A stretch of DNA of 54,622 nt from Candidatus Alloscybalousia intestinigallinarum (GTDB lineage: Bacteria > Bacillota_I > Bacilli_A > RF39 > UBA660), in NCBI GenBank assembly GCA_018716115.1, contig DVKF01000059.1, positions 1-54,622 of the forward strand. Reading direction: 5' to 3'. The translations under genes and the position numbers were made by a program. Positions 12,229 through 46,034 of this stretch are shown here, piece by piece (within the stretch, counting starts at the first letter, position 1; each line of letters starts with the position of its first letter). The notes under the pieces were generated by a model. The model saw only the letters and a list, made by a program, of their open reading frames with translations. It made no database searches and had not been told where the DNA came from.

Positions 12229-13965
12229 TTATGTAGTTGGAGCAATAGTAACTGTTCCTACCCCACTACCTAATTTATCTTGAATCCATGATTGACTACT
12301 AGTATCTTTTACTATAATTTGAATAGTAGAAGGTACAGTGTTGAACATACTAGCATAGCTAGTTACAGTATCAAATGTTGCATTTCTGAAATCTAAATTT
12401 ATTAAGTTACTACAATTATAAAACATAGCAGTCATATACTTTACCGTCGGGGTATCAAAATGACTTAAATCTAGATTCGTTAAACTACTACAGTCTTTAA
12501 ACATAAAAGCCATATCCGTTACTTGGGATGTATCAAAATGACTTAAATCTAAATTCGTTAATTTACTACAGCTATAAAACATATCCCGCATATTCGTTAC
12601 TTGCGAAGTATCAAGATGACTTAAATCTAGGCTTGTTAAACCACTACATTCATTAAACATACTACCCATAGTCGTTACTTGGGATGTATTAAAATCACTT
12701 AAATCTAAACTTGTTAAACTACCACAGTTAGAAAACATACCACTCATATCTTTTACTTGAGAAGTATCAAAACTACTTAAATCTAGATTCGTTAATTTAC
12801 TACAGCTATAAAACATATCCTGCATATTCGTTACCTGGGAGGTGTCAAATTCACTTAAATCTAAACTTGTTAAACTACCACAGTTAGAAAACATACCACT
12901 CATATCTTTTACTTGAGAAGTATCAAATCCACTTAAATTCAAACTAGTTAAAAGACTACAATCAGAAAACATACCTTCCATAGTCATCACTTGGGAAGTA
13001 TCTACATACTCTAGACCTTCTACCACGGTTAAAACGTTTAACCCAGTATCTGGATTAATTAGGTAAAATAACGCTAAACCACTCGATAAATAAATCACGT
13101 CATTTCCTTGGATATATAATGTATAAGTAGTCTCTGGAAATTGCATTTCTCCCATATCAGGTGGAAGTTCTGGTGGAATAAAAGATCCTTCTTCATTCTC
13201 TACTAAATAGGCCATACAATTACCATCATTATTTTCCGATACATCCCAGCTTAACTCAGTTTCGATTGGTTCCATTTTATTTTGGAAAACTATTTTACTA
13301 ATAGAACCACTATATTGATAGAATGTTTCAGAAGACATAGGATCATTTCTTTCTCTCATTACACTTAATTTACTAGTAGGTTCTTGTTTTTCTAAGGTAT
13401 CTACTTGCATTGTCATCGCTAAACTTAATCCTTGATCTTCATTCTGAGGTTTACCTGTTTCTTGTAACCACACTTTTAAGAGATAACTTTGTTTTTCTGC
13501 TGGAGCTAAAATCATATTGGTTTTAATGACAAACTCATTATCTCCACTTAAATAACCACTTGATGAAGAAAAACTTCCAGATTTAACTAGAGTTCCTTCC
13601 GTATAATCTTCATCTGCTTGATATAAAGCCCATTTTAAATTATGAGAATAGGTATCCATCCCCATTTTTGTTAAAGTAATATCGATAAAACTGATATTAT
13701 AATGTGCATCTAAAGTTCCTGTATTTTCAACTGTAAATTGATGAATAGAAGCTGAACTTTCTTCTGTTGGGATAATACTAAGAGCATTGATATCTTGCCC
13801 TGTTTCATAGGTTAGTCTTAGCGTTCCACTTTCTACTACTTGTTCATTTGAAGTCGCAGTTGCGGTAAAGTAGGCATAACTTGTCCCGGTTATGATTAAA
13901 GCAAGTCCTACAATTATGGCGATAATGCTTAGAGCTTTACGCTTATTTTTACAATTTTTTTTCAT
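12229..13965 (-). CDS. SipW/TasA-type exported surface protein with BspA-like leucine-rich repeats
   Basis: 578 residues. The N-terminus has a long hydrophobic signal ending in TSYAYFTATATSNEQVV, the hallmark of TasA/CalY-type proteins processed by the signal peptidase SipW. A camelysin-like beta domain follows to about residue 190 (TLRLTYETG ... FTVENTGTLDAHYNISF). A linker with repeat-free strands then leads to eight consecutive 26-residue BspA-type (DUF285) leucine-rich repeats of the form DTSQV-x-x-M-x-x-MF-x-x-C-S-x-L-T-x-LDLS, plus a degenerate cap. No LPXTG anchor is present. The fusion suggests that a fibre-forming domain displays an adhesive solenoid; that role is inferred. No sipW gene is in the window. 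Confidence 0.85.
   Translation of the reverse strand: MKKNCKNKRKALSIIAIIVGLALIITGTSYAYFTATATSNEQVVESGTLRLTYETGQDINALSIIPTEESSASIHQFTVENTGTLDAHYNISFIDITLTKMGMDTYSHNLKWALYQADEDYTEGTLVKSGSFSSSSGYLSGDNEFVIKTNMILAPAEKQSYLLKVWLQETGKPQNEDQGLSLAMTMQVDTLEKQEPTSKLSVMRERNDPMSSETFYQYSGSISKIVFQNKMEPIETELSWDVSENNDGNCMAYLVENEEGSFIPPELPPDMGEMQFPETTYTLYIQGNDVIYLSSGLALFYLINPDTGLNVLTVVEGLEYVDTSQVMTMEGMFSDCSLLTSLNLSGFDTSQVKDMSGMFSNCGSLTSLDLSEFDTSQVTNMQDMFYSCSKLTNLDLSSFDTSQVKDMSGMFSNCGSLTSLDLSDFNTSQVTTMGSMFNECSGLTSLDLSHLDTSQVTNMRDMFYSCSKLTNLDLSHFDTSQVTDMAFMFKDCSSLTNLDLSHFDTPTVKYMTAMFYNCSNLINLDFRNATFDTVTSYASMFNTVPSTIQIIVKDTSSQSWIQDKLGSGVGTVTIAPTT
12382..13005 (-). repeat. Eight tandem 78-bp repeats encoding BspA-type LRR units
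   Basis: The unit is exactly 78 bp (26 codons). Units 2 and 4 are near-identical (KDMSGMFSNCGSLTSLDLS), and units 3 and 6 share TNM-x-DMFYSCSKLTNLDLS. This points to recent within-gene duplication or recombination, so copy number is likely variable between strains. Confidence 0.9.
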
Positions 13966-14171: not shown

Positions 14172-15794
14172 TTATTCAGCTAATAATTCTCGTAGTTGAT
14201 TCTTATACTCTTCTAGTTTTGTCTGATACTCCATAATTTCTGCATCTTTTTCTTCATTACTCGTTCTTAACTCATCAATTTCTTGTTGTTTAGCTTCGAT
14301 CTGTAGTTCTAGATCATTGATGATTGCCTCTAAGCTATTGATTTCTTCTTGTCTCATTTCCTCTTCTTGACGAAGATGATACTCTTGTTCATTTTGTTGA
14401 ATACGTTCTATATTTTCTTTAGATGCGGTAATATTTACGGTTATCTTTTCTAATAAACCATAATTATAAATGGTTCTTTCTTTTAAATTAGAAAGTAACT
14501 TTTTCTTCCATTCTTTAACCCTATTCTCAGTAAGGCTAAAATCTTGATTAATATAGATTACGTTATTTTCTAGATTCATTTCAATATCGTTGTAAGCATC
14601 TGCATATTCTACCTCTACTCGAACCTTATCGGCTAACGTGTCATCTTCATGATAATTGACTTGGGCATAAGCATACGCTTTGACAAAAAGTTCTGGCGTC
14701 ATTGAATATTCCTCTTGAAGTGTTTTCATCTCTACCTGTTCAGGTAAACGGTCATAGTAAGTAGTATTAGAAATTTCAATGGCACTAATCGCACCAGAAA
14801 TACCGATTCCTACTAGGGAGAGAATAAAGAGAAAAATAGCGAGTTTACCTTTTGGTGCTTGATTCAATAGCCAATGTAAGACAAGACTAACTATACAATA
14901 GTTAAGGAGTAAACAGCTAAGAAGAAGGAGAAGAATTCCGATATAAGGAATACCTTGGAAGATAAGTACGATTCCGATGACAATGAAGAAGACAAGGCAA
15001 ACAAGGGAAATTAAAAATGGAATTAGAATACAAGCTAAGCAGAATTTCACAAAAAAGGTAAATAAAGTACCTAGTATTTTGGTAATTAGTGATGTTGAGC
15101 GTTCACGTCGTGGGGCATAGATCACTTTTTCTTGTTTTTCTTTTTTCTCTTCCCCACTTTTTTCATCTGATGATTCTGTTTGATCATTCGTATCCATGTC
15201 TATATCTACTTCTTTTATTTTTCCTTGTTGTTTGGTTAACTGTTGTTCTTTTTCCCATTTTTCTAAGAATAATAATTTATATAAATAAAAGAAGCAAATA
15301 ATCGCTAGAATCAGATAGGATACGGAAAGTAGAAAATTCCATATTGGACTTAGTATATTAGATACTTGAGTACCAAAGCTGATAAAGATATCGTGACCTA
15401 GACTATAAATATAATCAACAGGAAATTTCAAGAAACGCAAGATGAAGGCGATAATCAACATACCGATAATACATTTTAAGATTTCTTGGGCATTCATCTT
15501 CTGAAACATCTGAATACTACGGTTAATGATATCCATTACTTCATCGATGAAATTACTAGCGGTTAATTTTGTTTTTTCCGTATTTTTGATTTCCTTTACT
15601 TCATCATTAGTCAAATCATCAAGACTACATTTAAATATTTTACATAGGGCTAGTAGCTTATCCATTTCCGGATAAGTTTGACCCGATTCCCATTTCGATA
15701 CTGCTTGACGAGAGACATCTAGCATATCCGCTAATTGTTCTTGGGATAGTTTATTTTCTTTTCTTAATTTTTGGAGTTTTTCACTAAACTTCAT
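14172..15794 (-). CDS. XRE-family regulator with membrane domain and coiled-coil tail
   Basis: About 540 residues. Residues 1-65 form an XRE helix-turn-helix (LRKENKLSQEQLADMLDVSRQAVSKWESGQTYP, of the usual DUF-linked transcription-factor type). A hydrophobic region of at least six membrane segments follows (about 115-185 and 245-345), split by a charged Lys/Glu loop. Then comes an extracytoplasmic stretch and a long C-terminal coiled coil (EEMRQEEINSLEAIINDLELQIEAKQQEIDEL). A DNA-binding domain tethered to the membrane suggests signal transduction from the envelope. ATG at 15794 is chosen, since the GTG nine bases upstream is part of the GAGGTG ribosome site. Confidence 0.8.
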   Translation of the reverse strand: MKFSEKLQKLRKENKLSQEQLADMLDVSRQAVSKWESGQTYPEMDKLLALCKIFKCSLDDLTNDEVKEIKNTEKTKLTASNFIDEVMDIINRSIQMFQKMNAQEILKCIIGMLIIAFILRFLKFPVDYIYSLGHDIFISFGTQVSNILSPIWNFLLSVSYLILAIICFFYLYKLLFLEKWEKEQQLTKQQGKIKEVDIDMDTNDQTESSDEKSGEEKKEKQEKVIYAPRRERSTSLITKILGTLFTFFVKFCLACILIPFLISLVCLVFFIVIGIVLIFQGIPYIGILLLLLSCLLLNYCIVSLVLHWLLNQAPKGKLAIFLFILSLVGIGISGAISAIEISNTTYYDRLPEQVEMKTLQEEYSMTPELFVKAYAYAQVNYHEDDTLADKVRVEVEYADAYNDIEMNLENNVIYINQDFSLTENRVKEWKKKLLSNLKERTIYNYGLLEKITVNITASKENIERIQQNEQEYHLRQEEEMRQEEINSLEAIINDLELQIEAKQQEIDELRTSNEEKDAEIMEYQTKLEEYKNQLRELLAE

Positions 15795-15828
15795 TTCTTT
15801 CACCTCGAAGTCATCTTAACCCAAAACC

Positions 15829-26458: not shown

Positions 26459-27343
26459 TCACTTCCCTTTCTTTACCTTATATATGGTTTTTTGATAGAA
26501 GAAATTGGTACTATCTCCAATCAAAGAAGCTGTCTTTTCTAAATATTTCTCTAAATCGATGTCGTCTCCTATTTCTACTTTTTCTTTGATTTCGTTAAAT
26601 AATTCTAGTACTTGTAAAGAAGTATCCATAGGAATAAAACTAGTGTCTAAAAGTCCGTAATCTAGATTACTTCTAATTAATTCCGGTAAAGCTTTAGTGC
26701 CATTAATGATTTTTCCAAAAAAGAGACTAGTTCCAGTTTTATCTTCTGTGATTAGATAGTCATTCTCAGGGTTAGTATGATCTTGTAAAGTATATTGTTC
26801 TTTCTGTTTCGCTTTTCCCATACTTTTAAAATAATTAGAAATTAACATTCTTCTAGAATGAGACATACTAGGATATCCCATGATTTGAACGATCAACTGC
26901 ATCTTCGTTTTTTTCTTCATCTCAATAATTTCTTCTAAGGTTACTTCGTTAGCAATCAACCCATACTTGACTCCTTTTTCAAAATAATAATTACAAGTAT
27001 TATAGTTAGTTACCATATGGGTTTGATTCCAGACTAGATCTAGGGCTAACTGTTTCCTTCTCACCATACTTAAGATTGCTAGATCATAGAAGAAAATCCC
27101 TTTAATATTCGTTTTTTCTAACTCGATTAGTAAACGTTCTACTTCTTCTAATTCCTCGTTAAAAATATTTTTATTCATGGCAATAAAAAGTTCACTTTCT
27201 TTAGAAAGTTCTTTGATTTCTTCTAGCGTTAATTCCGGATAATGAACACTATAATTTTTTAAACCAAATAAAAAGTGATTGACTCCTTTTTCCTGATAGA
27301 ATTTTATTTCCTGTTTATCTTGTGGGACAACAATATACTGCAT
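26459..27343 (-). CDS. trhP1: U32 family peptidase-like tRNA hydroxylation protein TrhP1 (YrrN)
   Basis: A 294-residue shorter U32 protein that partners the longer one encoded 5 bp downstream, as YrrN does with YrrO. It begins YIVVPQDKQEIKFYQEKGVNHFLFGLKNYSVHYPELTLEEI and carries the TIM-barrel strand pattern (GIFFYDLAIL, LVWNQTHMVTNYNTCNYYF), but it lacks the cysteine cluster of its partner. In Bacillus it follows trmR (yrrM) directly; here the six-gene paralogue array lies in between. Confidence 0.82.
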   Translation of the reverse strand: MQYIVVPQDKQEIKFYQEKGVNHFLFGLKNYSVHYPELTLEEIKELSKESELFIAMNKNIFNEELEEVERLLIELEKTNIKGIFFYDLAILSMVRRKQLALDLVWNQTHMVTNYNTCNYYFEKGVKYGLIANEVTLEEIIEMKKKTKMQLIVQIMGYPSMSHSRRMLISNYFKSMGKAKQKEQYTLQDHTNPENDYLITEDKTGTSLFFGKIINGTKALPELIRSNLDYGLLDTSFIPMDTSLQVLELFNEIKEKVEIGDDIDLEKYLEKTASLIGDSTNFFYQKTIYKVKKGK

Positions 27344-27650
27344 ATTATTCCTTCTTCCTCTTTCGATATTATTTAACCATAGAAAAAAGAAAAAGAAAAG
27401 TTATTTTTCCCTTTTCTTTACTAATTTTCTGTAGTGAATTCTTGTTATAGTATCTATAATTTATCCTATATTTTATTATGTAAAGAAGCATAATACCGAT
27501 TTAAATACAGTTTAAACCCTCTTGATGTTCTTTAACTCTATCTGATTTTGATCTAGATTAAGTAAAATTTCTCTAATGCAGGCCAATTTTTTATAATAAT
27601 CTTTTTTCGGTCCATGCTCATTCCCCTATTCATCTTTTATTATTCATCTT
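27344..27650 (-). other. Intergenic region between paralogue array and trhP1, holding a decayed seventh copy
   Basis: About 300 AT-rich bases. The part nearest the array holds the direct repeat AAAAGATGAATA (twice) and the remnant described separately. The part nearest trhP1 shows no clear terminator but must hold the trhP1 promoter; TTATAGTATCTATAATTT-like boxes are present. Nothing else is recognisable. Confidence 0.5.
27512..27615 (-). pseudogene. Remnant of a seventh array paralogue (N-terminus only)
   Basis: On the minus strand AGGGGAATGAGC precedes an ATG. After a one-base frame disturbance in an A-run, the reading YKKLACIREILLNLDQNQIELKN matches the conserved beginning of the six intact paralogues (EKLLLIKEILIxADxxxIxLP). 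It stops at TAA after about 30 codons, and nothing further of the family is found downstream. This decayed copy directly follows the last intact gene, showing that the array has lost as well as gained members. Confidence 0.6.
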
Positions 27651-29390
27651 TTATTTTTTTAATACTTTATTTCTTTTTTCTTTTTCTTGTTTTAACATAT
27701 GATCTACTTCATCAATTTGGGCTTGATAAAGACGATATGTTGGGGGTAAAGAAGATTCTATTACGGATACTTGGGATTCTTTTTGACTCTTCTTTTGGAA
27801 CTCTATAAATTCTTTTTTTGGTCGTTGTTTCAATTCCTTCATATAATCAATCGCTATTAGATAAGTATCTAGGGATATATCCGATGGATATTGTTCTGTT
27901 AGAGCGTCAAGGATATTTTTTCTTTCCCAATCATATTTGGTTTTAAAGATAAGATCGATAATTTTCTTATATATTTCTAGGGCATTATTGGTCGCACTAT
28001 TTTCTAAAAATTCGCCACAATTTAAAGCAGTAAACGCTGCTCGAATTTGTTTTTCTTTTTCCTTCGTGATAGATGGTGATAATTTATTTAGTAAATATTG
28101 GTAGATTTGGTAAATATCTGGATTAGTTTGAGAGAGACGTTTAATATTTTCGTTTGTGATTGATTTTTGGAATTCTTTAGTAAGAGAAGGATCTAATTGG
28201 GTGAATTTCTCTATGAAGTCAATCAGTTCAGAAAATGAATTCAATGTCTTCTGCAAATTTTTTTGTTGAAGTATCTCCGCTACAGAATCTAAAGAAGCAG
28301 GGTCTAAAGTTTCAAAATAATTAAGTAGCTGAATTAAGGCATCTTGTCCTATTCTAAGTTCTTCTTCACTGATTAGCAAGCGGAAAAAATAATTATTATT
28401 ACTATTTAGTAAATTTAATAGTGAATCTTTTTTCTCATCAGTTATTGTAGAGGCAAGATCATGACTTAACGCATATACAGAAAACTCTCCATTTTTTGTA
28501 AAGTAAAGATGGAAAGGAACAAGAAAATAGCTAAATATGACTAAGGCTAGCTCATTTTCGCTAGTTTCTGCTTTTTTAACAAACGACAAAAAATTAGGAA
28601 TATGAATTACTGCTTGTTCAACTAAAGCATGAAAATCAGGATTCATCAATAGTTCAGTTTCTATATCTAGGAGTGACGGATCATTCTGTTTTTTTATTTT
28701 TGTTAATAGTTGATGAAACTCAAGCTTACTGATATCTAAAGTACAAAAATCACGATTAGATAATAAAGCAGAAATTTCTTTTCTTTCTCTACTCCATAAT
28801 AGATATTGATAAAATTCTTCGTGCGAAATTTCTTTATTTTCTATCCAATCTTTGGTAAAATCACTAATTAAAATGGTACTGATTTCTCTTAGTGAGTTAA
28901 ATACTTCTTCATCGGTTAGTTTAGGATTTTCAATTGTGGACTGGAGTAAAGAATAAATTTCTCGATGGGTAAATTCTTCTTTGAGAAGCAGGGAAATAAT
29001 ATTTTTAAATAAAGAAAGCGTGTTTTTACGTTTATCTTTTCCCATTCTAATATAGGAAAATAATTGTTTTTTAGTTGGTTCTAATTCAGAAAATTTGACA
29101 ATTGAGTCAAGATAAGTTGAAAATTGTTCACTTTGAATATCCGTACAATCCCATCTTGTCTGGTTTAAAATTTCCAGCATCATTTGTTTTTTTAAATATT
29201 TATTTTCTATTTTAAGATTAAGAATAAAATTTAAATAAACAAGGAAATTTTGGCCATCTGTCTCAGCTAACCACCTTATCATCGGGAAACTTTGTTCTAA
29301 TAGCCTAGAAACAATATCTTCTGGTAATTTTAATTGTTGTTGATCAGCTTGTATTAAAATTTTTCTAATATATAATAACTTTTCTCGCAT
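27651..29390 (-). CDS. Tandem array paralogue 6 (last intact copy), unknown function
   Basis: A 579-residue protein of the same unrecognised family as its five upstream neighbours. It has the conserved head (MREKLLYIRKILIQADQQQLKLPEDIVSRLL) and tail (FKTKYDWERKNILDALTEQYPSDISLDTYLIAIDYM, then YRLYQAQIDEVDHMLKQEKEK). There is no signal peptide, membrane segment, cysteine motif or nucleotide-binding loop. The sequence is Leu/Ile/Glu/Lys-rich and looks all-helical, with a repeating helix-turn pattern that suggests an alpha-solenoid. Unlike the other members it is separated from the preceding copy by 219 bp and has only a weak ribosome site (AAGAAGAGAAC). Confidence 0.88.
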   Translation of the reverse strand: MREKLLYIRKILIQADQQQLKLPEDIVSRLLEQSFPMIRWLAETDGQNFLVYLNFILNLKIENKYLKKQMMLEILNQTRWDCTDIQSEQFSTYLDSIVKFSELEPTKKQLFSYIRMGKDKRKNTLSLFKNIISLLLKEEFTHREIYSLLQSTIENPKLTDEEVFNSLREISTILISDFTKDWIENKEISHEEFYQYLLWSRERKEISALLSNRDFCTLDISKLEFHQLLTKIKKQNDPSLLDIETELLMNPDFHALVEQAVIHIPNFLSFVKKAETSENELALVIFSYFLVPFHLYFTKNGEFSVYALSHDLASTITDEKKDSLLNLLNSNNNYFFRLLISEEELRIGQDALIQLLNYFETLDPASLDSVAEILQQKNLQKTLNSFSELIDFIEKFTQLDPSLTKEFQKSITNENIKRLSQTNPDIYQIYQYLLNKLSPSITKEKEKQIRAAFTALNCGEFLENSATNNALEIYKKIIDLIFKTKYDWERKNILDALTEQYPSDISLDTYLIAIDYMKELKQRPKKEFIEFQKKSQKESQVSVIESSLPPTYRLYQAQIDEVDHMLKQEKEKRNKVLKK

Positions 29391-29609
29391 ATTTGTTCTC
29401 TTCTTTCTATTTATCGGATATTTTATGGATTCTATTTATTTACAGTATCTGTTTTCTTTATTATCTAAATATAATACTTTATATCCAGATTTATCTTTTT
29501 TTAGGTAAAATGTTTTCTTCCTAGAAAGTGGGGATTCTGTCTACTAATACTTCAGTTTCATTCTTTTCTACTTTCCGGATCTTTCATTAAATTTAAGTTT
29601 GACTCGTCT

Positions 29610-31319
29610 TTATTTTACTCCTTTAGGTTTAGTCTTTTTTAAGGTTTTATTTTCTTCTTTTTCTAGCATATCCTCAATTTTTGCGATATATTCTCCATAT
29701 TGAGGATATCTTTCGTCTTGATGACGGACGGTTTCATCCTTCATAAAATGAAGTAATAGAAAATAAGTACTAGGGGAAATTTCTTTATATTTTTCAGTAG
29801 ATACCATATAGAGATGATTTAATTGCGATTCTTCTTTACAGTCAAAGACAATATCCGTTAGATGCTGTAAGTCTTCTTTGGTTAGGGAAGTTTGAAAATG
29901 CTGATTAAATTCCGATGAAGTTAAAATATTACTTATGGTATCCAATTTTTGTCTACATAATCTATTTTCCTCTTTTGCCTTATTCGCTATATAAGGTAAT
30001 ATTTCATACCTAGTGATATCCTTGGATAGAAAATCTTCAAAATTATTGTTGCTAACTAAGTCAAGAAGGATATCTGAAGTTGCGATATCCAATTCGGGAA
30101 TGTTTAATGCTTTTAATTGTTCTACTATTTCTTCACAAGAGGAATAATGAAAGAAAAGATAACCATTCTCTAACATTCTTAGTGTCGTAATAAAAGCATT
30201 ATAAGAAGGAATACTAGTGAGATAGGTAATTAGCTTTTCTAGTTGTTGATTATTTTCTTCTGGTGAAAGAGAATTATTTTTAAACATTTCAATCATTCCT
30301 GTTGTCTCTGCTAAGCACAATAGATTTTCTATCCCACTTTGTGTGCCGTATGGTTTATTTTCTAATAAAGAAGTAAATTTCTTACATAAATGTAGTGGAT
30401 TTTGATGAGTAGATACGCAATAATTACTCCACTCTTCAAAAAGAAAATAATAAAACATCCGTAAATTCAATTCCCAGTTTTGATAATCTGTGTTTTTTTC
30501 ACAAACTAAAGAAATGACTTCTTTCATCGATAGATCAGTTTCAAACACTAAGCTCTTCAAATTAGGACAGGTTAAAATATTGGTTTTCCAGTTAATAGAA
30601 TGATTTTGAGCCTCCTCTATCTTTATCGTATCTAAGATTTTTCGATAATCTGAGGCACTCATTTGATTTTTTTCTAATAAATAAATCAAAGTATCACTAG
30701 CTAAAACTCTAACTAAATATTTATTATCTAAACCGATAGATAACAGTTCAAGCATTTCTTTTTCCGTTAGGTAGTGTCTTTCTAACAATTTATTTTCCTG
30801 TTGGAGTTTTTTTAATAACAGAACTTCTTCTTTTATTGCTTTTTTATTTAGTGGATAGGCGTCTTCTTGATAGAATGGTTCTAAAAATTTTAAGAGTTGT
30901 TTGTGATTTTGTTTAGAAAATCCACCTAGTCCTTCTTTAAAGAAAGAAACAATAAATAAGAACATTTCGTCTACTTTCTCGGTATTTTTCATCTTCTCTA
31001 TAAACGCAAGCATTTGTCTTCTAGTGGGATTTAACTCTAAAAATGCGGAAACCACTTTGGTATTTAGTGATTTATTTTGATTGATTGAACGTAAATGAAT
31101 TAGTAAATCTCTTTTATAGTCGACTTCTTCTAATGTAAAATAAAAGGAATAGAGATTTTTTATTTGATCTTCATCTACCGTTTTTGCTAGTATCCAAAGA
31201 TTTCTTTCGTCTTCAGCTAGTAATTGATTATAGACTTTTTCTTTATCACTTAGTTGAACTCGATGTTCTTCCATCTTGATCAGAATCTCTTTTATATGAT
31301 TTAATTTTTCTATATTCAT
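29610..31319 (-). CDS. Tandem array paralogue 5, unknown function
   Basis: 569 residues, the most divergent member. The head is MNIEKLNHIKEILIKMEEHRVQL, while the usual LP-x-DVVS-x-LL box has become SDKEKVYNQLL. The tail motif is weakened to KEESQLNHLYMVSTEKYKEISPSTYFLLLHFM, without the WQRKNI sequence, but ends with the shared YPQYGEYIAKIEDMLEKEENK pattern. Conserved middle segments such as LTEKEMLELLSIGLDNKYLVRVLASD and LNPTRRQMLAFIEKMKN align with the others. It is predicted cytosolic and all-helical. It starts 11 bp after the preceding copy, so it is cotranscribed. Divergence suggests an early duplication or relaxed selection. Confidence 0.88.
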   Translation of the reverse strand: MNIEKLNHIKEILIKMEEHRVQLSDKEKVYNQLLAEDERNLWILAKTVDEDQIKNLYSFYFTLEEVDYKRDLLIHLRSINQNKSLNTKVVSAFLELNPTRRQMLAFIEKMKNTEKVDEMFLFIVSFFKEGLGGFSKQNHKQLLKFLEPFYQEDAYPLNKKAIKEEVLLLKKLQQENKLLERHYLTEKEMLELLSIGLDNKYLVRVLASDTLIYLLEKNQMSASDYRKILDTIKIEEAQNHSINWKTNILTCPNLKSLVFETDLSMKEVISLVCEKNTDYQNWELNLRMFYYFLFEEWSNYCVSTHQNPLHLCKKFTSLLENKPYGTQSGIENLLCLAETTGMIEMFKNNSLSPEENNQQLEKLITYLTSIPSYNAFITTLRMLENGYLFFHYSSCEEIVEQLKALNIPELDIATSDILLDLVSNNNFEDFLSKDITRYEILPYIANKAKEENRLCRQKLDTISNILTSSEFNQHFQTSLTKEDLQHLTDIVFDCKEESQLNHLYMVSTEKYKEISPSTYFLLLHFMKDETVRHQDERYPQYGEYIAKIEDMLEKEENKTLKKTKPKGVK

Positions 31320-31330
31320 GTTTTCCTCTC

Positions 31331-32995
31331 CTATTTTTTCTGTAATATTTTAGGGTTATCTTGTTCTAATTGTTTTAACAAGTTATCCACTTCGGCGATT
31401 TGGTTTTGATATAGATAGGATTTTTTCCTTGGACGAGTGGCCCAGTCTTCTTTAGGTCTCTTTTTCATTTCTGCCATATACTTAATGGCCATTAGATAAG
31501 TATCTTTCTTAATATCATTTGGGTAATGTAATTGCGCTACTTCTTGGATATTCTCCAATTGCCAAGCTTCTTTGGTATTTAAGGTAAGATCAATCAATTC
31601 TTTCATGTCATCTATACTTAGTTTCCGCATTATGGTTAGCTCTAAAGCATAGTCGATCAACCAAAGTGCGGTTTGGAATTGTTTCTTTTCTATCACTGAA
31701 ACTGAAGGGGAATTAGATATTTTTTCTATTAAATACGGATATAATTCTAATGCGATTCTGCTATTATTTACTATTGAGTGGCACAACTCTCCTTCAAGGG
31801 ACGGATGAACTGAACTAATTTGCTTTAAGTAGTTAGCAACCTCAAGGAAGGAATGAGAGTTTACTAGCAAAGGGGAAGTGGCTAAAATTTCCATGTATCT
31901 CTTTCTTTTTAACGGTTCTAGTTGCTTTAAATAGGTTAATAAATCGGCTAATTCTTGTAAAGAGGTGTCCCCTTTTTTCATTGGCCCAATCGATATATCT
32001 AATATTTCTTGTGTTGAACTGAATAATAATTCATCAAAACCATATTCGTTTTGCGGATCGATTTTATATAAAGTTTCTGATACTTGTTTACTAAATTCTA
32101 GGGGATCATTTTCATTAATAGCGAATAAGGTCATTCCCTTGTTTAATATTTTTAAACACATAAGATCTTCTTTTTTCTCACGTTCATTGATAAAAGCTAA
32201 TACTTCTGATAGTTGAAGATTATGTTTAGCTAATAGAATAGGAAAATAGTTAGCGGTAAATATTTCTATTTCTTGCCTTGTATAAGATTCTGGTTTAGCC
32301 TTTCTGACTTGAGCTAATACACTTCTAATTTCTTGAAGAGTTAGATTTTGTAAATGTTCATTTTTTAGTAACTCGGCTACTGCCTCACTATCTAAAATCC
32401 AAGATAAATATTCGGAACAATCTTGCGAAGATATTCCTTTATTCTTTATTAAGTGAAAGAAGTTAAGATTGTTTTCTACATTTTCTATTCGTTCTAAAGT
32501 TGGGGTATAGACAAAGTCTCGTTCAAGAATTTTCTTTAGTAATGCTAGAATATTTGTATTCACGATAGATAAATTTCTCATTCCATTGATTACTCTTCTT
32601 AAACAACGGGGTTCATCCACTTTTTTCGCTTTTTCTATAAATTCAAATACGTCATCACTTTGAGGATCAAGTTTACAAAAGTCAATCAATAATCCTTTGT
32701 ATTGTGAAAAATTGGTATCGTCGATATCGGGACTTATGATAAATAAATCTCTTTCCATTCCAATTAATTGAATGAGTACTTGTCTTTTTTCCCGGCTGGT
32801 TAACGTATTCGCATTTAAGATAAAATCAATCGACTCTTGTTTATAGTGAGAAGGATCATTTACTAATAATTTTAGCGTCTCTTTATCTTCTTTTAACAAT
32901 TCCAAGACAATATTCTCTGGAAGTGTGAGTGTTTCAGCTTCTGTTTCTGTGTTAATTAAAAATTCTCTAATCAATAATAATTTTTCTTTTTCCAT
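31331..32995 (-). CDS. Tandem array paralogue 4, unknown function
   Basis: 554 residues with head MEKEKLLLIREFLINTETEAETLTLPENIVLELLKED and tail LNTKEAWQLENIQEVAQLHYPNDIKKDTYLMAIKYMAEMKKRPKEDW, closing YLYQNQIAEVDNLLKQLEQ. The middle has the shared ISSQDCSEYLSWILDSEAVAELLKNE and LAFINEREKKEDLMCLKIL segments. No catalytic motif or export signal is seen. It begins 9 bp after paralogue 3 and is followed after 11 bp by paralogue 5, so it is certainly part of one transcript. Confidence 0.9.
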   Translation of the reverse strand: MEKEKLLLIREFLINTETEAETLTLPENIVLELLKEDKETLKLLVNDPSHYKQESIDFILNANTLTSREKRQVLIQLIGMERDLFIISPDIDDTNFSQYKGLLIDFCKLDPQSDDVFEFIEKAKKVDEPRCLRRVINGMRNLSIVNTNILALLKKILERDFVYTPTLERIENVENNLNFFHLIKNKGISSQDCSEYLSWILDSEAVAELLKNEHLQNLTLQEIRSVLAQVRKAKPESYTRQEIEIFTANYFPILLAKHNLQLSEVLAFINEREKKEDLMCLKILNKGMTLFAINENDPLEFSKQVSETLYKIDPQNEYGFDELLFSSTQEILDISIGPMKKGDTSLQELADLLTYLKQLEPLKRKRYMEILATSPLLVNSHSFLEVANYLKQISSVHPSLEGELCHSIVNNSRIALELYPYLIEKISNSPSVSVIEKKQFQTALWLIDYALELTIMRKLSIDDMKELIDLTLNTKEAWQLENIQEVAQLHYPNDIKKDTYLMAIKYMAEMKKRPKEDWATRPRKKSYLYQNQIAEVDNLLKQLEQDNPKILQKK

Positions 32996-33004
32996 ATTTT
33001 TCTC

Positions 33005-34717
33005 CTATTTCGTTCTTTTTTTTGTTTTTGGTTGTTCTAAACTTTTTAGCATACTATCTACTTCATTGATTTGTTTTTGGTAAAGCTCATATGAAGGAGC
33101 AAAAAATTCTGTTGGAATTTCTCCTTTATCTCTTTCTTTCATCTTAGACATATAGAAGATAGCACTTAAATAAGCATCTCTATCTATTTTTTGAGGATAA
33201 TCTTCCCCCATAACATCGACAATATTCCGGCGTTGCCAATTAAATCTTGTCTCGAAAATACGATCGATAATTTCACGATAGATATCTAACGCATCATTTC
33301 CCCCATATTTTGTATGATTTAAAATAGAAAGAGCGGTATCTAATTTTTTCTTTTCTAATTTAGTTACAGGATTAGATAACTTTCCTATTAGATAAGGATA
33401 CAATCGATAGATTTGTGCATCATCATAAAAAATATATTTTATATTTGGACTTATTATTGACTGATATAGGTCTCCGGCTAGGAAAAGCTCTAATTGAAGG
33501 AAGTGGTTAAAAAAGGAAATGAGCTCATCCATAGAATTCATACTTTCTGCTATATAGGTCCATGTCAAGATATCGATTAAAAAAGTGTTTTTCGTATTTT
33601 GAATGGAAAAGTCGGGATCATGTTGCTCAGCTAATGATTCGAATAAAGGAATCAATTGGTTATCTAGCGCATTCGTTAAGTCTTTTTCCTCTTTTAATAG
33701 TTGGACAAGACCACTTTCTCCCAGTACGTCTATCAATTCTTTTTGTTTTTTTGAAGGGGCTTTTCTAATTGCGGAAGCAATTTTCTTACTGAATTCAATC
33801 ATAAACGGAGAAACATCGGAGATAGTGACAGCATCGTAAAAGTCACGCCAATCATCTGAAAGAAGCGCATAAAACACGCGTAATGGTAAAAGATCCCTTT
33901 TTTCTTCTAGTTCTTGGGTGAATTCAAGAAAAGAAGATATGTCTAATTTTTTATCCAATACTAGCTTTTGAAAATTTTCGTATAGAAATAGCTGCGTCTC
34001 CATGTTTAAAAATGGCGATTTCTGGAGTTGCGTTAGGATTTGATCAAACTCGTCAGTACTAATGGTTAACGAACAGAAATCCTTATCGTCTAATAAAGAG
34101 GCAATTTTTTCATTTTCTATCGTCCAAGATAAATATTTCAAAAGAGTTTCGTGAGTAATTTTTTTCTCTTCTAACAAAACATCTATATTTCCATTACTCA
34201 AAATACTATTTACATAAAGTAAATTACTGGACTCATTCCTATCCGGATCACAGACAGGCTCTAACAAAGATAAAATTTCTTGATTAGAACATTCATATCC
34301 ATGTAGTTGATTGATGATATCAATCATTAATTGATTCTCATTTTTATTTTTGTTTTTCATGGTTCTAGTATAGGCAAATAGTTGGTCTTTGGTTGGGGCC
34401 AGTTGGTTAAATTTAACGATTGAAGTAACGTATTGATTCAATTGTTTTACTTTATCTTCGTTATATGAAGGAATCTGTTTTCCCATTTCCATGATTTCGT
34501 CTAATAGTTGTTTCTTTATGCTTTCCTCTTTTATTCTGGTGGATAGAACAAAATCTAAATATAGTGGTTTATGTTCAGATTCATCATTTGTTAATGCCTG
34601 TAAAACATCGATACTTTCTTTTAATAGTTTAGAAACTACATCAGCTGGTAATTTTATCCTCTTCTTATCGGCATAAATCAGAATTTCTTTGATTAATAAT
34701 AATTTTTCTTTATCCAT
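33005..34717 (-). CDS. Tandem array paralogue 3, unknown function
   Basis: 570 residues with head MDKEKLLLIKEILIYADKKRIKLPADVVSKLLKES. Shared inner segments are FNQLAPTKDQLFAYTRTMKNK, THETLLKYLSWTIENEKIASLLDDKDF and YPYLIGKLSNPVTKLEKKKLDTALSIL. The tail is FETRFNWQRRNIVDVMGEDYPQKIDRDAYLSAIFYMSKMKERDKGE, closing YELYQKQINEVDSMLKSLEQPKTKKRTK. It is closest to paralogues 2 and 6. Soluble and helical by appearance, it starts only 4 bp after the preceding stop codon, giving near-coupled translation. Confidence 0.9.
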   Translation of the reverse strand: MDKEKLLLIKEILIYADKKRIKLPADVVSKLLKESIDVLQALTNDESEHKPLYLDFVLSTRIKEESIKKQLLDEIMEMGKQIPSYNEDKVKQLNQYVTSIVKFNQLAPTKDQLFAYTRTMKNKNKNENQLMIDIINQLHGYECSNQEILSLLEPVCDPDRNESSNLLYVNSILSNGNIDVLLEEKKITHETLLKYLSWTIENEKIASLLDDKDFCSLTISTDEFDQILTQLQKSPFLNMETQLFLYENFQKLVLDKKLDISSFLEFTQELEEKRDLLPLRVFYALLSDDWRDFYDAVTISDVSPFMIEFSKKIASAIRKAPSKKQKELIDVLGESGLVQLLKEEKDLTNALDNQLIPLFESLAEQHDPDFSIQNTKNTFLIDILTWTYIAESMNSMDELISFFNHFLQLELFLAGDLYQSIISPNIKYIFYDDAQIYRLYPYLIGKLSNPVTKLEKKKLDTALSILNHTKYGGNDALDIYREIIDRIFETRFNWQRRNIVDVMGEDYPQKIDRDAYLSAIFYMSKMKERDKGEIPTEFFAPSYELYQKQINEVDSMLKSLEQPKTKKRTK

Positions 34718-34721
34718 AATT

Positions 34722-36377
34722 CTATTCTCCTATCTTTTTTCGTTTTGTTTTTGGTTGTTCTAATTCTTCTAACATCGCATTTACTTCATCTATCTGTGCT
34801 TGAAAATGGCGATAACGAGGAGTTGGTGGTTTTGGTGGTAATTCATTTTTGTCTCTTGGTTTCATTTCTGCCATATATTTAATCATCATTAAATACGTAT
34901 CGTTTTTTATATCAGCTGGATATTTATCTAAAGCTACTTCTTGAATATTTTTACGTTGCCAATCGTACTTCGTTTCAAAAATAAGGTCGATAATTTCTTG
35001 AATGGTTTTTACATCCATCGTACAGTCTTCTTCTCTTTTCTTATTATCTATAATAGAAAGCGCCACTTCTAATTTTTCTTTCCTTTCTAGAGGAGATTCA
35101 TCCGATAGTTTTTGAATTAGATAAGGATACAAATCATAATAAGCAGAATCATCCTCAATCGTTCTAGCAGAATAGCTATCTATCGTTTTGCTGAATATGG
35201 ATAGTAAATAAGGTCTCAACGTTTCAAATTGTTTTAGATAATCGATAATATCTGGAATGTTCTTTTTACTTCCTAAGATCCCACTGTTTACTATTCGCAT
35301 GAAATAAGGAAATTGCGTAGTATCTAATTGTAATAAGTAGGTAAGTAAACTAAGAAATTGCGTTTTTCCTTCTTTCTTATTTTTTTCACTAAATCGTAAG
35401 GGAATATTGTAATTCTCTAGTAGTCGACTTATCTCTTTAGGATAATCCTTCTTTTTTTGATGAATAATTGTTGCGATTTGTTTACTAAATTCGATGCTGT
35501 CTACTTTCCTATTCCACTCTCCAGGTAATAAATGGTTAAATATTTGGATAGGTAGAATATCTTCTTTTGATTTTTGTTCTTGAATAAAAGCTAAAAGGCG
35601 AGAAACCGTCATTCTTTTTTCCTTTACTTCCTCTAAAAAATGGTAACTATTTAATATTTCATATTCTAATTCTGTGAATGATTCTTGTTGTTCTTTAAAA
35701 TCATTCACAATCCTCTTAAAGTCTTCTGTATTTAATTCTAGTTCCTTGAAATTATTCTCTAGTAATAACTCGGATAACTTTTCGTTTTTTATACTTGAAG
35801 ATAAGTATTCTAAAAAGTCCTCGCGAGAAATTTTATTTTTCTTGATCCATTCATAAGTAGACTTTAGATCAATAATTCGAACTATATTATAGGTAGCAAA
35901 AGAATTTTCGTCTGGTTTTTCTACAGGAATACCATCTAAGACGGTTAGAATTTCTTTTTTTTCTATTCCTATTTTTCCTAATACAGTTATGATATCGGTA
36001 AAGTACTCATGATCTGCTCGATCACGCGTTGCTTCGACAAATTTTTCTAATTGTTCCTCGGTTGGTTCTAGGTTAGAAAACATAGTAATAGAAACTACAT
36101 ATCGATGGAATGCTTCCCGATCACACACTAGTCGCATTTCTTGCCCTATTTCGATTAATTTGTTCAGTAACTGTTTTTTGACCTTTTTCTCTAAATGAGG
36201 AGTATTTAGTAAAAACTCAAGATGAGTGGATTTATTGATTAGTGCTTCGTTATTAAGAATTTCTAATGTAGATAGTTCTTCTTTCATTAACTGGGACACT
36301 ACGTCATCTGGTAGACTCCAATTTTCCTTATCTGCTTCTATTAAGATGTTTTTAATACATAGTAATTTTTCTTTCAT
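34722..36377 (-). CDS. Tandem array paralogue 2, unknown function
   Basis: 551 residues with head MKEKLLCIKNILIEADKENWSLPDDVVSQLMKEEL and tail FETKYDWQRKNIQEVALDKYPADIKNDTYLMMIKYMAEMKPRDKNE. The tail continues with a proline-rich linker PPKPPTP and the closing helix FQAQIDEVNAMLEELEQPKTKRKKIGE. Middle segments FSNLEPTEEQLEKFVEATRD and SREDFLEYLSSSIKNEKLSELLLENNF align across the family. No known domain recognised. Its basic C-terminus and charged helices could suit protein-protein contacts. It starts 20 bp after paralogue 1. Confidence 0.9.
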   Translation of the reverse strand: MKEKLLCIKNILIEADKENWSLPDDVVSQLMKEELSTLEILNNEALINKSTHLEFLLNTPHLEKKVKKQLLNKLIEIGQEMRLVCDREAFHRYVVSITMFSNLEPTEEQLEKFVEATRDRADHEYFTDIITVLGKIGIEKKEILTVLDGIPVEKPDENSFATYNIVRIIDLKSTYEWIKKNKISREDFLEYLSSSIKNEKLSELLLENNFKELELNTEDFKRIVNDFKEQQESFTELEYEILNSYHFLEEVKEKRMTVSRLLAFIQEQKSKEDILPIQIFNHLLPGEWNRKVDSIEFSKQIATIIHQKKKDYPKEISRLLENYNIPLRFSEKNKKEGKTQFLSLLTYLLQLDTTQFPYFMRIVNSGILGSKKNIPDIIDYLKQFETLRPYLLSIFSKTIDSYSARTIEDDSAYYDLYPYLIQKLSDESPLERKEKLEVALSIIDNKKREEDCTMDVKTIQEIIDLIFETKYDWQRKNIQEVALDKYPADIKNDTYLMMIKYMAEMKPRDKNELPPKPPTPRYRHFQAQIDEVNAMLEELEQPKTKRKKIGE

Positions 36378-36397
36378 ACATGGATGCTCCTTATATT

Positions 36398-37876
36398 TTA
36401 CTGATGGTTTAAAGTTTTTGTTTTTGGATGGTTCTCTTCAGTTATCTTTAATAATTGATCGATTTCTTCAATCTGTTTAGTATACCGGTTAAATTTTTCT
36501 TTCTTTTCTTCACGCGGTGGATAAATAGAAGAGTATTCCATAAAGGTTAAATAGCTATCAACTCCAATATGTCGATAGTGAAAATTTTCTTCCGCAGCTA
36601 ATACCATATTATCTCGTTGCCATTCTTCTGTTGTTCTAAACACTAAGTCGATAATATGACGACTATTTTCTACATCTTCAAAAACTTTTTGACATTTTTC
36701 TTTACTAACACAAGCTAAATCATGTGTAGTAGTCAATATGTTAGCTACAGTAAGAAGTTTATCTATTTCTTCGTCAGTTATTGGATTAGAAAGATGATCA
36801 AACAAATAGAAAATTACCGAATAATATTCTTTATTCGTTATTAATATCGTATATAATCTATCGTTATTTAGACTAAACATCTGAAGAAACATCGATGCAG
36901 CTGTGGGATCTAGTTGAACGAAGCGTTCTAATAATTCTTGAACAGTTGCCAGAGATACATTACGAGGAAGTTGTTGTAATAGTTTTCTACAAGCGTAGCG
37001 TTGTTCTTCTCGTAAATCATTTAAAAACTTTATTGTTTTAAATAGTGTTTCTTCTTGATAACCGTGATTAAAAAAATCATAAAGAATAAGGGATGGAAGA
37101 GGTCTAGAGCCTGATTCTTTACTAATGGAAGCGATTTTCTTAGTTAAAGTTAGATGAAGTCCCTTTTCTGTACCATCCTTTGTTAGATAATGCTCATCTA
37201 CTCGGTAAAGAATATCCGTCAAAATGGAAATGGAATCATAATCTTTTTTCTTTAAATGTTCTTGGATAAAATCCATTACTTCTTTTACACTTATCTTTTC
37301 TTGATTCACTAACCGACTAAAATTAGAACTCGTAAAAAGGATTTTTATTTTGTGTTTGATTTCTTTTTCTTGATAAAGCCAATTCATTATTTGATCTAAA
37401 TCTTCATTAGTTACTCTTTGCTTTTTAATTAAGGAAAGCATCTCTTCAGAACTTAGTACATAAGAAATATCATCTTCTTTTAAACTCCAAGATAAATAAC
37501 GTAAAAAACTATCACGAGGAACTAATTTTTTATCTAAATACGGATACATATTAGAAAAATACTGGGGAAAAATATAAATATCATCACTACGCCATTCATT
37601 TCCTTCATAGATTGGTCTTAATACGTTTAAAATTTCTTTGTCATTTAGTTCTATTTTTAGTGCTTGAATAAGTGACGCAATTGATAAATTACTATCTTTT
37701 TTTAGCGCTTCAATAAATCCACTTAATTCTTTTTCATTCGGGTGAAGATGAGAAAGTTGAACAAGTGTCCTTATATAGTTATCAACTAATTTTTCCGGAT
37801 TAGCAACAACATAATCCATTAAATGATCTAAAGCTTGTTCTTTTTCTACCGAAAAAAAATTCTGATTGTAAAACAA
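36398..37876 (-). CDS. Tandem array paralogue 1, main part downstream of a frameshift
   Basis: 492 residues covering nearly all of the protein except its head. It contains the shared segments LSHLHPNEKELSGFIEALKK, VPRDSFLRYLSWSLKEDDISYVLSSEEM, IFYLFDHLSNPITDEEIDKLLTVANIL, FRTTEEWQRDNMVLAAEENFHYRHIGVDSYLTFMEY and the closing YTKQIEEIDQLLKITEE. The conserved beginning lies in a different frame (next entry). Removing one base from the T8 tract joins the two into one frame through SEFFSVEKEQ, giving a protein of about 553 residues, the family's normal length. As printed, the gene is out of frame. Confidence 0.8.
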   Translation of the reverse strand: MFYNQNFFSVEKEQALDHLMDYVVANPEKLVDNYIRTLVQLSHLHPNEKELSGFIEALKKDSNLSIASLIQALKIELNDKEILNVLRPIYEGNEWRSDDIYIFPQYFSNMYPYLDKKLVPRDSFLRYLSWSLKEDDISYVLSSEEMLSLIKKQRVTNEDLDQIMNWLYQEKEIKHKIKILFTSSNFSRLVNQEKISVKEVMDFIQEHLKKKDYDSISILTDILYRVDEHYLTKDGTEKGLHLTLTKKIASISKESGSRPLPSLILYDFFNHGYQEETLFKTIKFLNDLREEQRYACRKLLQQLPRNVSLATVQELLERFVQLDPTAASMFLQMFSLNNDRLYTILITNKEYYSVIFYLFDHLSNPITDEEIDKLLTVANILTTTHDLACVSKEKCQKVFEDVENSRHIIDLVFRTTEEWQRDNMVLAAEENFHYRHIGVDSYLTFMEYSSIYPPREEKKEKFNRYTKQIEEIDQLLKITEENHPKTKTLNHQ

Positions 37877-38060
37877 AAGAAAGTAACTGTTGCTTTTCTC
37901 TTTTTAAAGACAAAGACGAGCCATCAAACTCAATTAATTTTTTTAATAAGGATGTATTTTCTTGATACAGTAAAGAAACTACATCATCCGGTAAGTAGAA
38001 GTCCTCCTTATCAGCATCTATTAAAATATTTCGAATTAAATATAATTTTTCTCTCTCCAT
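37800..38060 (-). CDS. Tandem array paralogue 1, N-terminal part upstream of a frameshift
   Basis: This reading frame supplies the family head MEREKLYLIRNILIDADKEDFYLPDDVVSLLYQENTSLLKKLIEFDG and continues to LLSFVLQSEFF. It then enters a run of eight T's on the coding strand, after which the frame is lost; the final 17 codons are nonsense read-out. AGGAGG stands upstream of the ATG, so this is the real start of the first array gene. The product as printed would be an 86-residue stub unless polymerase or ribosome slippage, or strand-slippage mutation, restores the frame. Confidence 0.75.
   Translation of the reverse strand: MEREKLYLIRNILIDADKEDFYLPDDVVSLLYQENTSLLKKLIEFDGSSLSLKREKQQLLSFVLQSEFFFGRKRTSFRSFNGLCCC
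37852..37859 (-). repeat. Eight-base homopolymer at the frameshift of array paralogue 1
   Basis: T8 on the coding strand (A8 on the plus strand). Seven T's would keep the gene in frame and eight break it, so this is the exact site of the frameshift. Such tracts change length by strand slippage and also permit transcriptional slippage. Confidence 0.85.
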
Positions 38061-38616: not shown

Positions 38617-39216
38617 TTATCTTCTACGAGCAACCGCAATCCCGTCTCCTATTTTTAAGAATTCTACCTCATATTTGGGATTGTTTTTTAAATAATCGAT
38701 GTATTCTCTGATTTTTCTAATTAGACCTCTTAGATTTCTACTTTGGATACTATCTACATCCTTTTGGACTAAGCCATGAAAATCGATGTTATCAGTAATA
38801 ATCACTCCATGATCCGTTAAATTGGGTTCGAATTTTTCAAAGAAACGGATATTTTGACCTTTCGCCGCATCGATAAAAATCAAATCGAATTTACCTTCTA
38901 CTGTTGTTTCTAATGCGTCGTTAAAGATTAGCGTAATTTTATCTTCTAAGCCTAATTTTTTTACATTCTTAACCGCTTCAAGATAACGTTCATGATCACG
39001 TTCTATTGTCGTAATTTTCACATTGGGATTCGCAAGCGCCATCATGATTGCGGAATACCCTATCGCACTACCAATTTCTAAAATATTGGTGGTTTGATTT
39101 TTAATAATAAAAGTGGTTAAAAAATCAATTCCTTCATCTACCATAATTGGAACCTTATGATCTAAGGCATATTTTTTGATTTCTCTTATTTCTGCGTATA
39201 TACTTGTATTTGGCAT
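38617..39216 (-). CDS. trmR: Class I SAM O-methyltransferase TrmR (YrrM)
   Basis: A 199-residue member of the COMT-like O-methyltransferase family. Motif I is ILEIGSAIGYSAI, the acidic ribose contact is TTIERDHERYLEA, and the metal/catalytic Asp region is FDLIFIDAAKGQ and VIITDNIDFHG. In Bacillus subtilis YrrM (TrmR) methylates 5-hydroxyuridine in tRNA to 5-methoxyuridine, using the hydroxylated base made by TrhP1/TrhP2. It lies 8 bp after mltG, the same order as in Bacillus. Assignment rests on family plus gene order. Confidence 0.87.
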   Translation of the reverse strand: MPNTSIYAEIREIKKYALDHKVPIMVDEGIDFLTTFIIKNQTTNILEIGSAIGYSAIMMALANPNVKITTIERDHERYLEAVKNVKKLGLEDKITLIFNDALETTVEGKFDLIFIDAAKGQNIRFFEKFEPNLTDHGVIITDNIDFHGLVQKDVDSIQSRNLRGLIRKIREYIDYLKNNPKYEVEFLKIGDGIAVARRR

Positions 39217-44720: not shown

Positions 44721-46034
44721 TTAATCTTCGATTTTGAATTGTTCTAATTCCGATTTTTGTTCTTTTGCTTGATAATCAGCTTCTTGTTCGGTTAGCTTTT
44801 TCAATTTATCGTCGATTTGTCTTTGAATATCACTCATTTCTCCATCATCTGGTTGAGCATTTAATGCTTCTAGAATCTTAGCATGGCGAATTTGATTTAC
44901 TTTTTCTTTTAGATCAAAACATTTAATCGTTCTTTTTTCATAGCTTGGATAAAAAATCGCATTTTTGGGGATTGTTACCGTTTCAAAGTCCTTCTCTATT
45001 TTTTCCTCTTCATTACCCATCTCTATTTTTATATCTTCATTTCTAATTGAAATTAAATCACATAGTTTGATTATATATTTTCCATAGATATCGATTAGTC
45101 CTGATAAAGAACGCGTTGCGATATATACTTTTATATTTCTAGGTATACAAGAGGATAAAATATCTACTAAATCATGACATATTTCAATACTATCGAAATT
45201 ATCCAATATGAAATGGAACTTGGTATCTACGTTTAAATCGATTAATCTAGCATATAATTGTTCAATAAACATCGTAGCAACTGTATTTAAAGCGCTATTT
45301 TCATCTCTAGTAATCACAATAAAAGCGGTTGGTTTATGGATAGAAGTTTCAATATCAAAGGTTGTTTTATTCATCATCTGAGATAGATTTTCTCTAGTTG
45401 CATACATTCCTAATCTTTGTCTTGCGACAGATAAAATACTTCCCTTTGTCTCTTTAGGGGCTAAAATCGTGGCAGAAGCAAAAATATAGGCATTTGAAGT
45501 TGAGTTTTTAGCGTTAAAATATTCATTCAAATAAACTGAACCACCTATTTTTCCTTCCGCTTGATTAAGCATATTCATTATACTATTTAAATTTACTTCC
45601 TCAGGGGCACCATCTTCAAATAAGCCAAGGGTCACGCCTGTAAATAAATCGGATGCGGCATTATCCCAAAATGGGTCTTGAACTTGTTTTTCATAAAAGC
45701 AAGTTTTTCCGATTTTTTGTAAATATTCTTGGGCTTTATCCGTTTTTCCATTCTTGTATAACTGATATGGATACGTTAAAGGATTCCAGCCTTCACTTTT
45801 ATCTGGTTCTCTTAAGTTTATGATGATTGTCTGATAACCGTTTTCATTTAGCTTTTCCTGATACTGATGTAAATACTCTTCTCGTGTATCTAAAATCAAT
45901 AAGTTTTCTTTTTGCTCAATAATCTTATCTACAATAGGAAACAATATATTTGTCGTTTTCCCTGATGAGATATTTCCTTCGATAATCATATTTTGGGGAT
46001 GATTAAATAATTTTTCTAATATTTCTTTTTTCAT
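44721..46034 (-). CDS. VirD4/TraG-like conjugative coupling ATPase, orphan
   Basis: 437 residues. Walker A is GNISSGKTT (20-28), and the T4CP-type sequence GWNPLTYPYQLYKNGK with DPFWDNAASDLFTGVTLGLF follows. The Walker B-like stretch is FHFILDNFDSI and a later sensor is YIATRSLSGLIDIYG. Type IV coupling proteins pump DNA during conjugation. This one lacks the N-terminal membrane helices and has a glutamine/glutamate-rich coiled tail. No relaxase or secretion gene is nearby. It starts within the end of a MerR gene (32-bp overlap), with AAGGAGG six bases before its ATG, so the two form an operon. Role unknown. Confidence 0.8.
   Translation of the reverse strand: MKKEILEKLFNHPQNMIIEGNISSGKTTNILFPIVDKIIEQKENLLILDTREEYLHQYQEKLNENGYQTIIINLREPDKSEGWNPLTYPYQLYKNGKTDKAQEYLQKIGKTCFYEKQVQDPFWDNAASDLFTGVTLGLFEDGAPEEVNLNSIMNMLNQAEGKIGGSVYLNEYFNAKNSTSNAYIFASATILAPKETKGSILSVARQRLGMYATRENLSQMMNKTTFDIETSIHKPTAFIVITRDENSALNTVATMFIEQLYARLIDLNVDTKFHFILDNFDSIEICHDLVDILSSCIPRNIKVYIATRSLSGLIDIYGKYIIKLCDLISIRNEDIKIEMGNEEEKIEKDFETVTIPKNAIFYPSYEKRTIKCFDLKEKVNQIRHAKILEALNAQPDDGEMSDIQRQIDDKLKKLTEQEADYQAKEQKSELEQFKIED

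What the first reader, a model, noticed from the sequence alone, without database searches (positions are those of the whole stretch)
27512..38060. Tandem array of six paralogous, unrecognised 550-580 residue helical proteins plus a decayed seventh copy
Seen: six consecutive minus-strand genes share a head (EKLLxIKxILIxAD then LP-x-DVVS-x-LL), a middle (YLSW-x-x-x-x-x-x-I-x-x-LL) and a tail (KYDWQRKNI, YPxDIxxDTYLxAIKYM, then a QIxEVDxML helix), with gaps of 4-20 bp except one of 219 bp. They are strongly diverged but keep the same length, with no signal, membrane, catalytic or nucleotide motif. Inference: repeated duplication with divergence in a soluble alpha-solenoid suggests diversifying selection, as in recognition, defence or effector families. 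I know of no described family with this pattern. This is the best candidate in the window for a new system.
Basis: partly seen in the sequence, partly recalled or inferred. Interest (0 to 1): 0.85.

Follow-up and report, generated by a model that had tools for sequence, protein, structure and literature searches.

The report
Tandem array of orphan helical-solenoid proteins
A small-genome uncultured Bacilli species carries a row of six related, fast-changing proteins made of stacked helices, of a family found only in its own genus and always at the same spot in a tRNA-modification operon, whose constant ends and variable middles suggest a set of binding proteins of still unproven function.

Summary
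Six consecutive minus-strand paralogues (19-36% identical), five intact and one frameshifted at a T8 run, lie at 27651-38060. The 'decayed seventh' is real: its 31-residue head is 84% identical to an intact gene at the same position in a sister species. No library tried matched (Pfam, NCBIfam, PHROGs, PADLOC, PDB, phages, plasmids, viral contigs). Only five of 17 genomes of the genus carry the family, always at the trmR|trhP2 (yrrM|yrrN) junction; about 380 genomes each of the family and order gave no acceptable hit elsewhere. Copies range from seven to one, pseudogene or none. AlphaFold gives an all-helical solenoid (pLDDT 83, best of five models) without a confident PDB relative. The first 40 and last 120 residues are conserved, the middle is not. 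Orthologue dN/dS is 0.31-0.40 against 0.03-0.11 in flanking genes, nowhere above 1: loose constraint on a kept core, not proven diversifying selection. Duplications are old. The site is a conserved operon, not a prophage or defence island. Best reading: an undescribed genus-restricted solenoid family evolving by birth and death, probably protein-binding scaffolds with constant docking ends. A defence role is unsupported.

The parts
27651..29390 (-). copy c1, 579 aa, intact
   Evidence: orthologue pieces in G015 (L076:180-750), 74-80% identical, frame broken there
29610..31319 (-). copy c2, 569 aa, intact; second sub-group together with the intact G015 gene (tree support 96/94)
31331..32995 (-). 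copy c3, 554 aa, intact
33005..34717 (-). copy c4, 570 aa, intact; modelled as an all-helical solenoid (pLDDT 83.3, pTM 0.74)
   Evidence: 53% identical to the G007 fragment and 54% to the G004 fragment
34722..36377 (-). copy c5, 551 aa, intact
36398..38060 (-). copy c6, frameshifted: head 37800-38060 and body 36398-37876 in different frames
37852..37859 (-). run of eight T (coding strand) at which the frame of c6 changes
27512..27659 (-). remnant of the seventh copy: ribosome-binding region and about 31 codons of head, frame broken
26459..27343 (-). downstream neighbour: U32 family, yrrN/trhP2-like (U32 domain only)
   Evidence: operon context PMC6599085
25269..26462 (-). U32 plus U32 C-terminal domain, yrrO/trhP1-like
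38617..39216 (-). upstream neighbour: O-methyltransferase, yrrM/trmR-like
   Evidence: named by Pfam family and operon position

Best explanation
A genus-restricted family of soluble all-helical solenoid proteins that accumulated as a tandem array in one tolerant spot of a housekeeping operon, between trmR and trhP2, and evolves by birth and death. Shown: one locus, no detectable relatives outside the genus, variable copy number, decay in several relatives, preserved hydrophobic core, conserved ends, loosely constrained middle. Inferred: the copies are scaffold or recognition proteins that share one docking partner through the conserved N-terminal helices and the C-terminal region, and bind different protein or peptide ligands with the variable solenoid. 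The loss seen in relatives then means the repertoire is only conditionally useful.
For: Same site in all five carriers as far as contigs allow: G007, G011 and G015 directly upstream of the U32 gene; G004 directly downstream of the methyltransferase, with its contig end overlapping the U32 contig by exactly 77 bp. No acceptable hit in 386 family and 385 order genomes beyond this genus. Residues 1-40 and most of 441-560 are 35-50% identical per 20-residue block, the middle mostly 10-30%. In the c4/G004 orthologue pair residues 3-42 are 82% identical and 83-122 only 29%. Hydrophobic class is kept at 80-96% of hydrophobic positions while other sites are 25-47% identical, so the proteins are folded and selected. 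Helical model with good confidence. No signal of a catalytic or nucleotide-binding family. Starts are preceded by AGGAG-like ribosome-binding sites.
Against: No partner, ligand or phenotype is known. Only one of five AlphaFold models reached pLDDT 83 (others 52-68). Conserved ends could be structural caps rather than docking sites. Decay in G004, G007 and partly G015 fits simple dispensability as well. The G011 member joined on head similarity (E 5e-4 by hhalign, 1e-7 by HMMER against a tiny database) and position; it is only 18% identical to c4.
Confidence: 0.4

Rival explanations
1. A dispensable orphan family drifting under relaxed constraint. The array is an old expansion that is being lost; divergence reflects weak selection, not ligand diversity.
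For: dN/dS 0.31-0.40 with no measurable segment above 0.66; pseudogenes or fragments in G004, G007 and G015, a frameshift and a remnant in the window; empty site in several relatives.
Against: Five full-length open copies persist although dS between them is near saturation; hydrophobic core and head/tail are clearly kept.
Confidence: 0.3
2. Nucleic-acid-binding solenoids working like TAL-effector-like or mTERF proteins, each copy reading a different DNA or RNA site.
For: Apart from designed proteins, the best natural fold matches are TALE (E 3e-3 to 3e-2) and MTERF1/MTERF4 (Z 5.3-5.6) superhelices; the neighbouring genes modify tRNA.
Against: Matches are weak (TM at most 0.27 for these, Z under 8, a level the tool calls common for helical repeats). 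The proteins are acidic (pI 5.0-5.5, middle 4.7-5.5). No near-identical internal repeats. No Pfam TALE or mTERF hit.
Confidence: 0.12
3. Immunity or anti-effector proteins: an array of paralogues each neutralising a different toxin of competitors or phages.
For: Arrays of divergent immunity genes are, by my own knowledge, a described pattern in polymorphic toxin systems (review PMC3482391, found but not read); variable presence between close species.
Against: Far longer than usual immunity proteins (own knowledge); no toxin gene recognised next to the copies in the window, G004, G007 or G015; no PADLOC, Pfam or viral relative.
Confidence: 0.1
4. Accessory factors of the flanking mo5U34 tRNA-modification pathway (TrmR, TrhP1, TrhP2).
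For: Always inserted inside this operon.
Against: Two thirds of the relatives examined make do with a 6-163 bp junction, and other genera carry unrelated secreted proteins at the same junction, so position alone shows an insertion-tolerant site.
Confidence: 0.06

Closest known systems
TAL-effector-like and mTERF superhelical proteins
   Same: Long all-helical solenoids; the best natural fold neighbours by Foldseek and VIA-align.
   Different: Weak fold scores, acidic proteins, no regular near-identical repeats, no Pfam match.
ARM/HEAT/TPR type scaffold solenoids of bacteria (reviewed in PMC11514114)
   Same: General architecture; these mostly bind proteins.
   Different: No Pfam repeat model matches; helix spacing irregular; tandem array of full-length paralogues.
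Immunity-gene arrays of polymorphic toxin systems (PMC3482391, own knowledge)
   Same: Tandem, strongly diverged paralogues with variable copy number.
   Different: No toxin partner, much longer proteins, fixed in a housekeeping operon.
yrrM-yrrN-yrrO (trmR-trhP2-trhP1) operon of Bacillus subtilis (PMC6599085)
   Same: The host operon of the array.
   Different: In most relatives examined no such genes lie between the methyltransferase and the first U32 gene.

Membership tests
TAL-effector-like proteins | tandem near-identical 33-35 residue repeats | tested here: not met
   self profile comparison gives no strong off-diagonal match (best E 0.045); no hydrophobicity peak at repeat length
TAL-effector-like proteins | TALE superhelix fold | tested here: inconclusive
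   Foldseek E 3e-3 to 3e-2 but TM 0.11-0.21; VIA-align Z 4.6 or less
mTERF | match to the mTERF sequence profile | tested here: not met
   no mTERF model among Pfam matches at E up to 1
mTERF | mTERF fold | tested here: inconclusive
   Z 5.3-5.6 over 111-129 residues
TPR/HEAT/ARM repeat families | match to a repeat model above the curated cut-off | tested here: not met
Known anti-phage defence systems | match to a PADLOC model | tested here: not met
   only one noise-level hit, E 0.015
Known anti-phage defence systems | protection from phage | not testable with these tools
   needs experiment
Polymorphic-toxin immunity arrays | adjacent toxin or toxin fragment | tested here: not met
   neighbours in window, G004, G007 and G015 are mltG/trmR/trhP genes; G011 has an Rpn-family nuclease gene upstream
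Polymorphic-toxin immunity arrays | binding and neutralisation of a toxin | not testable with these tools
   needs experiment
Prophage or plasmid cargo | relatives on phages, plasmids or viral contigs | tested here: not met

The most novel reading that the evidence does not exclude
A bacterial repertoire of recognition solenoids: constant head and tail dock to one common partner while the variable middle of each paralogue reads a different protein ligand, with copies gained, recombined and lost between strains at a fixed chromosomal slot.
Probability: 0.25. Interest if true: 0.75.

Novelty: new variant of a known kind. Interest (0 to 1): 0.42.

Why it matters
The family has no name in any library tried, occupies about 10.4 kb of a genome of only 1.49 Mb, and varies in number between close species while its neighbours hardly change. 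If the copies are a binding repertoire, this would be a compact bacterial case of constant-end, variable-middle recognition proteins. If they are only drifting, it is still a clear example of how an orphan gene family is born and dies at one tolerant site in a core operon.

Tried and rejected
Pfam, NCBIfam, PHROGs and PADLOC: only noise-level hits. PDB by sequence: nothing credible. Foldseek in PDB and BFVD with the first, poorer model: nothing below E 0.6; with the better model, weak TALE and designed-repeat hits. A family that VIA-align does not list is not excluded. Viral contigs, phages, plasmids: none. Weak hits in G282, G099, G443 and G013 rejected as chance or low complexity (E 2e-4 to 0.03, partial, some with stops, hundreds of genomes searched). 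Mobile-element reading rejected: the flanks are leuS, lspA, ruvX, mltG, trmR and trhP genes. Recent amplification rejected: copies share only short DNA matches. Phase variation at the T8 run of c6 was considered; twelve 8-base A or T runs occur in the window, so one frameshift at such a run is not special and may also be a sequencing error. Literature searches found no description of such a family.

Full report
1. Observation. The window is contig 39 of a 1.49 Mb, 65-contig genome. Six consecutive minus-strand genes of about 550-580 codons lie at 27651-38060. Gaps are 219, 11, 9, 4 and 20 bp. Five are intact. In the sixth, head and body are in different frames, and the switch is at a T8 run at 37852-37859. 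A profile of the six finds all copies at E 1e-160 or better and nothing else in the genome. Identities between copies are 19-36%.

2. The seventh copy. The stretch 27519-27659 aligns over 143 nt with the start of a gene in sister species G015 (score 183; best of 200 shuffles 50). The translated head is 84% identical over 31 residues (E 3e-14). The G015 gene is open for 603 codons and sits between the copy-1 orthologue and the U32 gene, the same position as the remnant here. So the ancestral array had at least seven genes, and this lineage lost one.

3. Distribution. In 17 genomes of the genus, five carry the family: G000, G004, G007, G015 and, much diverged, G011. Searches of 386 genomes of the family and 385 of the order gave no acceptable hit elsewhere. 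None was found in viral contigs, phages or plasmids. The genome-contig scan returned only two contigs, matching those of G007 and G004 in length, both titled uncultured Bacilli bacterium. Detection is limited by divergence: G011 was missed by the first profile and seen because of its position, so more distant members may exist.

4. Site. The array interrupts yrrM|yrrN (trmR|trhP2), part of the mo5U34 tRNA wobble operon of B. subtilis (PMC6599085). Family assignments: O-methyltransferase, U32 domain only (YrrN-like), U32 plus C-terminal domain (YrrO-like), with MltG upstream. Of the 30 stretches from other genera in which both genes were found, 20 have a junction of 6-163 bp and 10 carry 1.2-3.6 kb, with unrelated products, several of them looking like NlpC/P60 or lysozyme-like secreted proteins by inspection. 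In this genus some relatives have a short junction (84-306 bp), others unrelated genes or a contig break there. The junction is therefore an insertion-tolerant slot, and position alone does not tie the array to tRNA modification.

5. Turnover and recombination. G007 keeps one fragment abutting the methyltransferase gene end; G004 one copy with an internal deletion and broken frames; G015 a broken copy-1 orthologue plus the intact seventh gene, with its contig cut inside the array. Comparing G004 with G007, the left flank is 82.8% identical, whereas array tail and right flank are 93.8% identical, with the step inside the array. This is a recombination or replacement boundary. The two G004 contigs overlap by exactly 77 bp at the end of the array, as expected from a fork in the assembly graph; strain variation there is one explanation. 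Orthologue groups c1, c2 and c4 cross species, so the duplications are old.

6. Selection. Orthologue pairs give dN/dS 0.37 (c4/G007), 0.40 (c4/G004), 0.31-0.37 (c1/G015), against 0.03-0.11 for the flanking genes. By segment it is 0.16 in residues 3-42 and up to 0.66 in 83-122. One segment has saturated dS and could not be scored. Nothing exceeds 1. Some of these orthologues are fragments or pseudogenes, which would raise the ratio. Hydrophobic class is kept at 80-96% of hydrophobic positions while other sites are 25-47% identical. Blocks 1-40 and 441-560 are the best conserved among copies, and DNA-level matches between copies are short and lie at heads and in the last third.

7. Fold. With eight rows headed by c4, AlphaFold gives an all-helical protein of about 35 helices, pLDDT 83.3, pTM 0.74, though the other four models are at 52-68. 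A first run headed by c1 gave 67.6. Foldseek finds designed helical repeats and, as natural neighbours, TALE proteins (the three best rows, named TOD6, which I take for TALE-linked enzymes) and mTERF proteins, at E 3e-3 and weaker with low TM-scores; VIA-align gives best Z 9.3 to a designed repeat and 5.3-5.6 to MTERF1/MTERF4. These are common levels for helical repeats and do not place the family. The proteins are acidic.

8. Reading. Most likely an undescribed, genus-restricted family of soluble solenoid scaffold or recognition proteins evolving by birth and death. Constant ends and a variable middle suggest a shared docking partner and different ligands; this last step is inference. The main rival is a dispensable family under weak constraint. 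Nothing found here supports a defence role specifically.

Noticed in passing
L078/L079 (G004) against L075 (G007): Sequence identity between two sister species jumps from about 83% to about 94% within the array remnant, a recombination boundary inside a housekeeping operon.
   Followed up: partly
L112, L113, L115, L119, L122, L127, L129, L132, L138, L139: In other genera the same trmR|trhP2 junction carries unrelated genes, several looking like NlpC/P60 or lytic transglycosylase cell-wall proteins next to a small anchored protein; a recurrent insertion slot.
   Followed up: partly
L094:1-801: Rpn-family PD-(D/E)XK nuclease/transposase gene directly upstream of the G011 family member; a similar-looking fragment lies at the contig end near the U32 gene in G001 (L085).
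   Followed up: no
L082:3036-5801 and L086:10717-13327: Two relatives carry a UvrD-like helicase and acetyltransferase-like genes after the methyltransferase instead of the U32 pair (by inspection).
   Followed up: no
window 12229-13965: DUF285 repeat protein with an N-terminal camelysin-like (Peptidase_M73) domain.
   Followed up: no
window 44721-46034: ORF matching the type IV secretion coupling protein family (T4SS-DNA_transf, E 6e-17) in an otherwise core chromosomal region.
   Followed up: no
window 52638-53537: Relative of spore coat protein YsxE (E 1e-25, below the curated cut-off) in a reduced-genome Bacilli species.
   Followed up: no
window 14172-15803: 543-residue protein with an N-terminal Cro/C1-type helix-turn-helix; matches RmrA-type PADLOC models only through that domain.
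   Followed up: no
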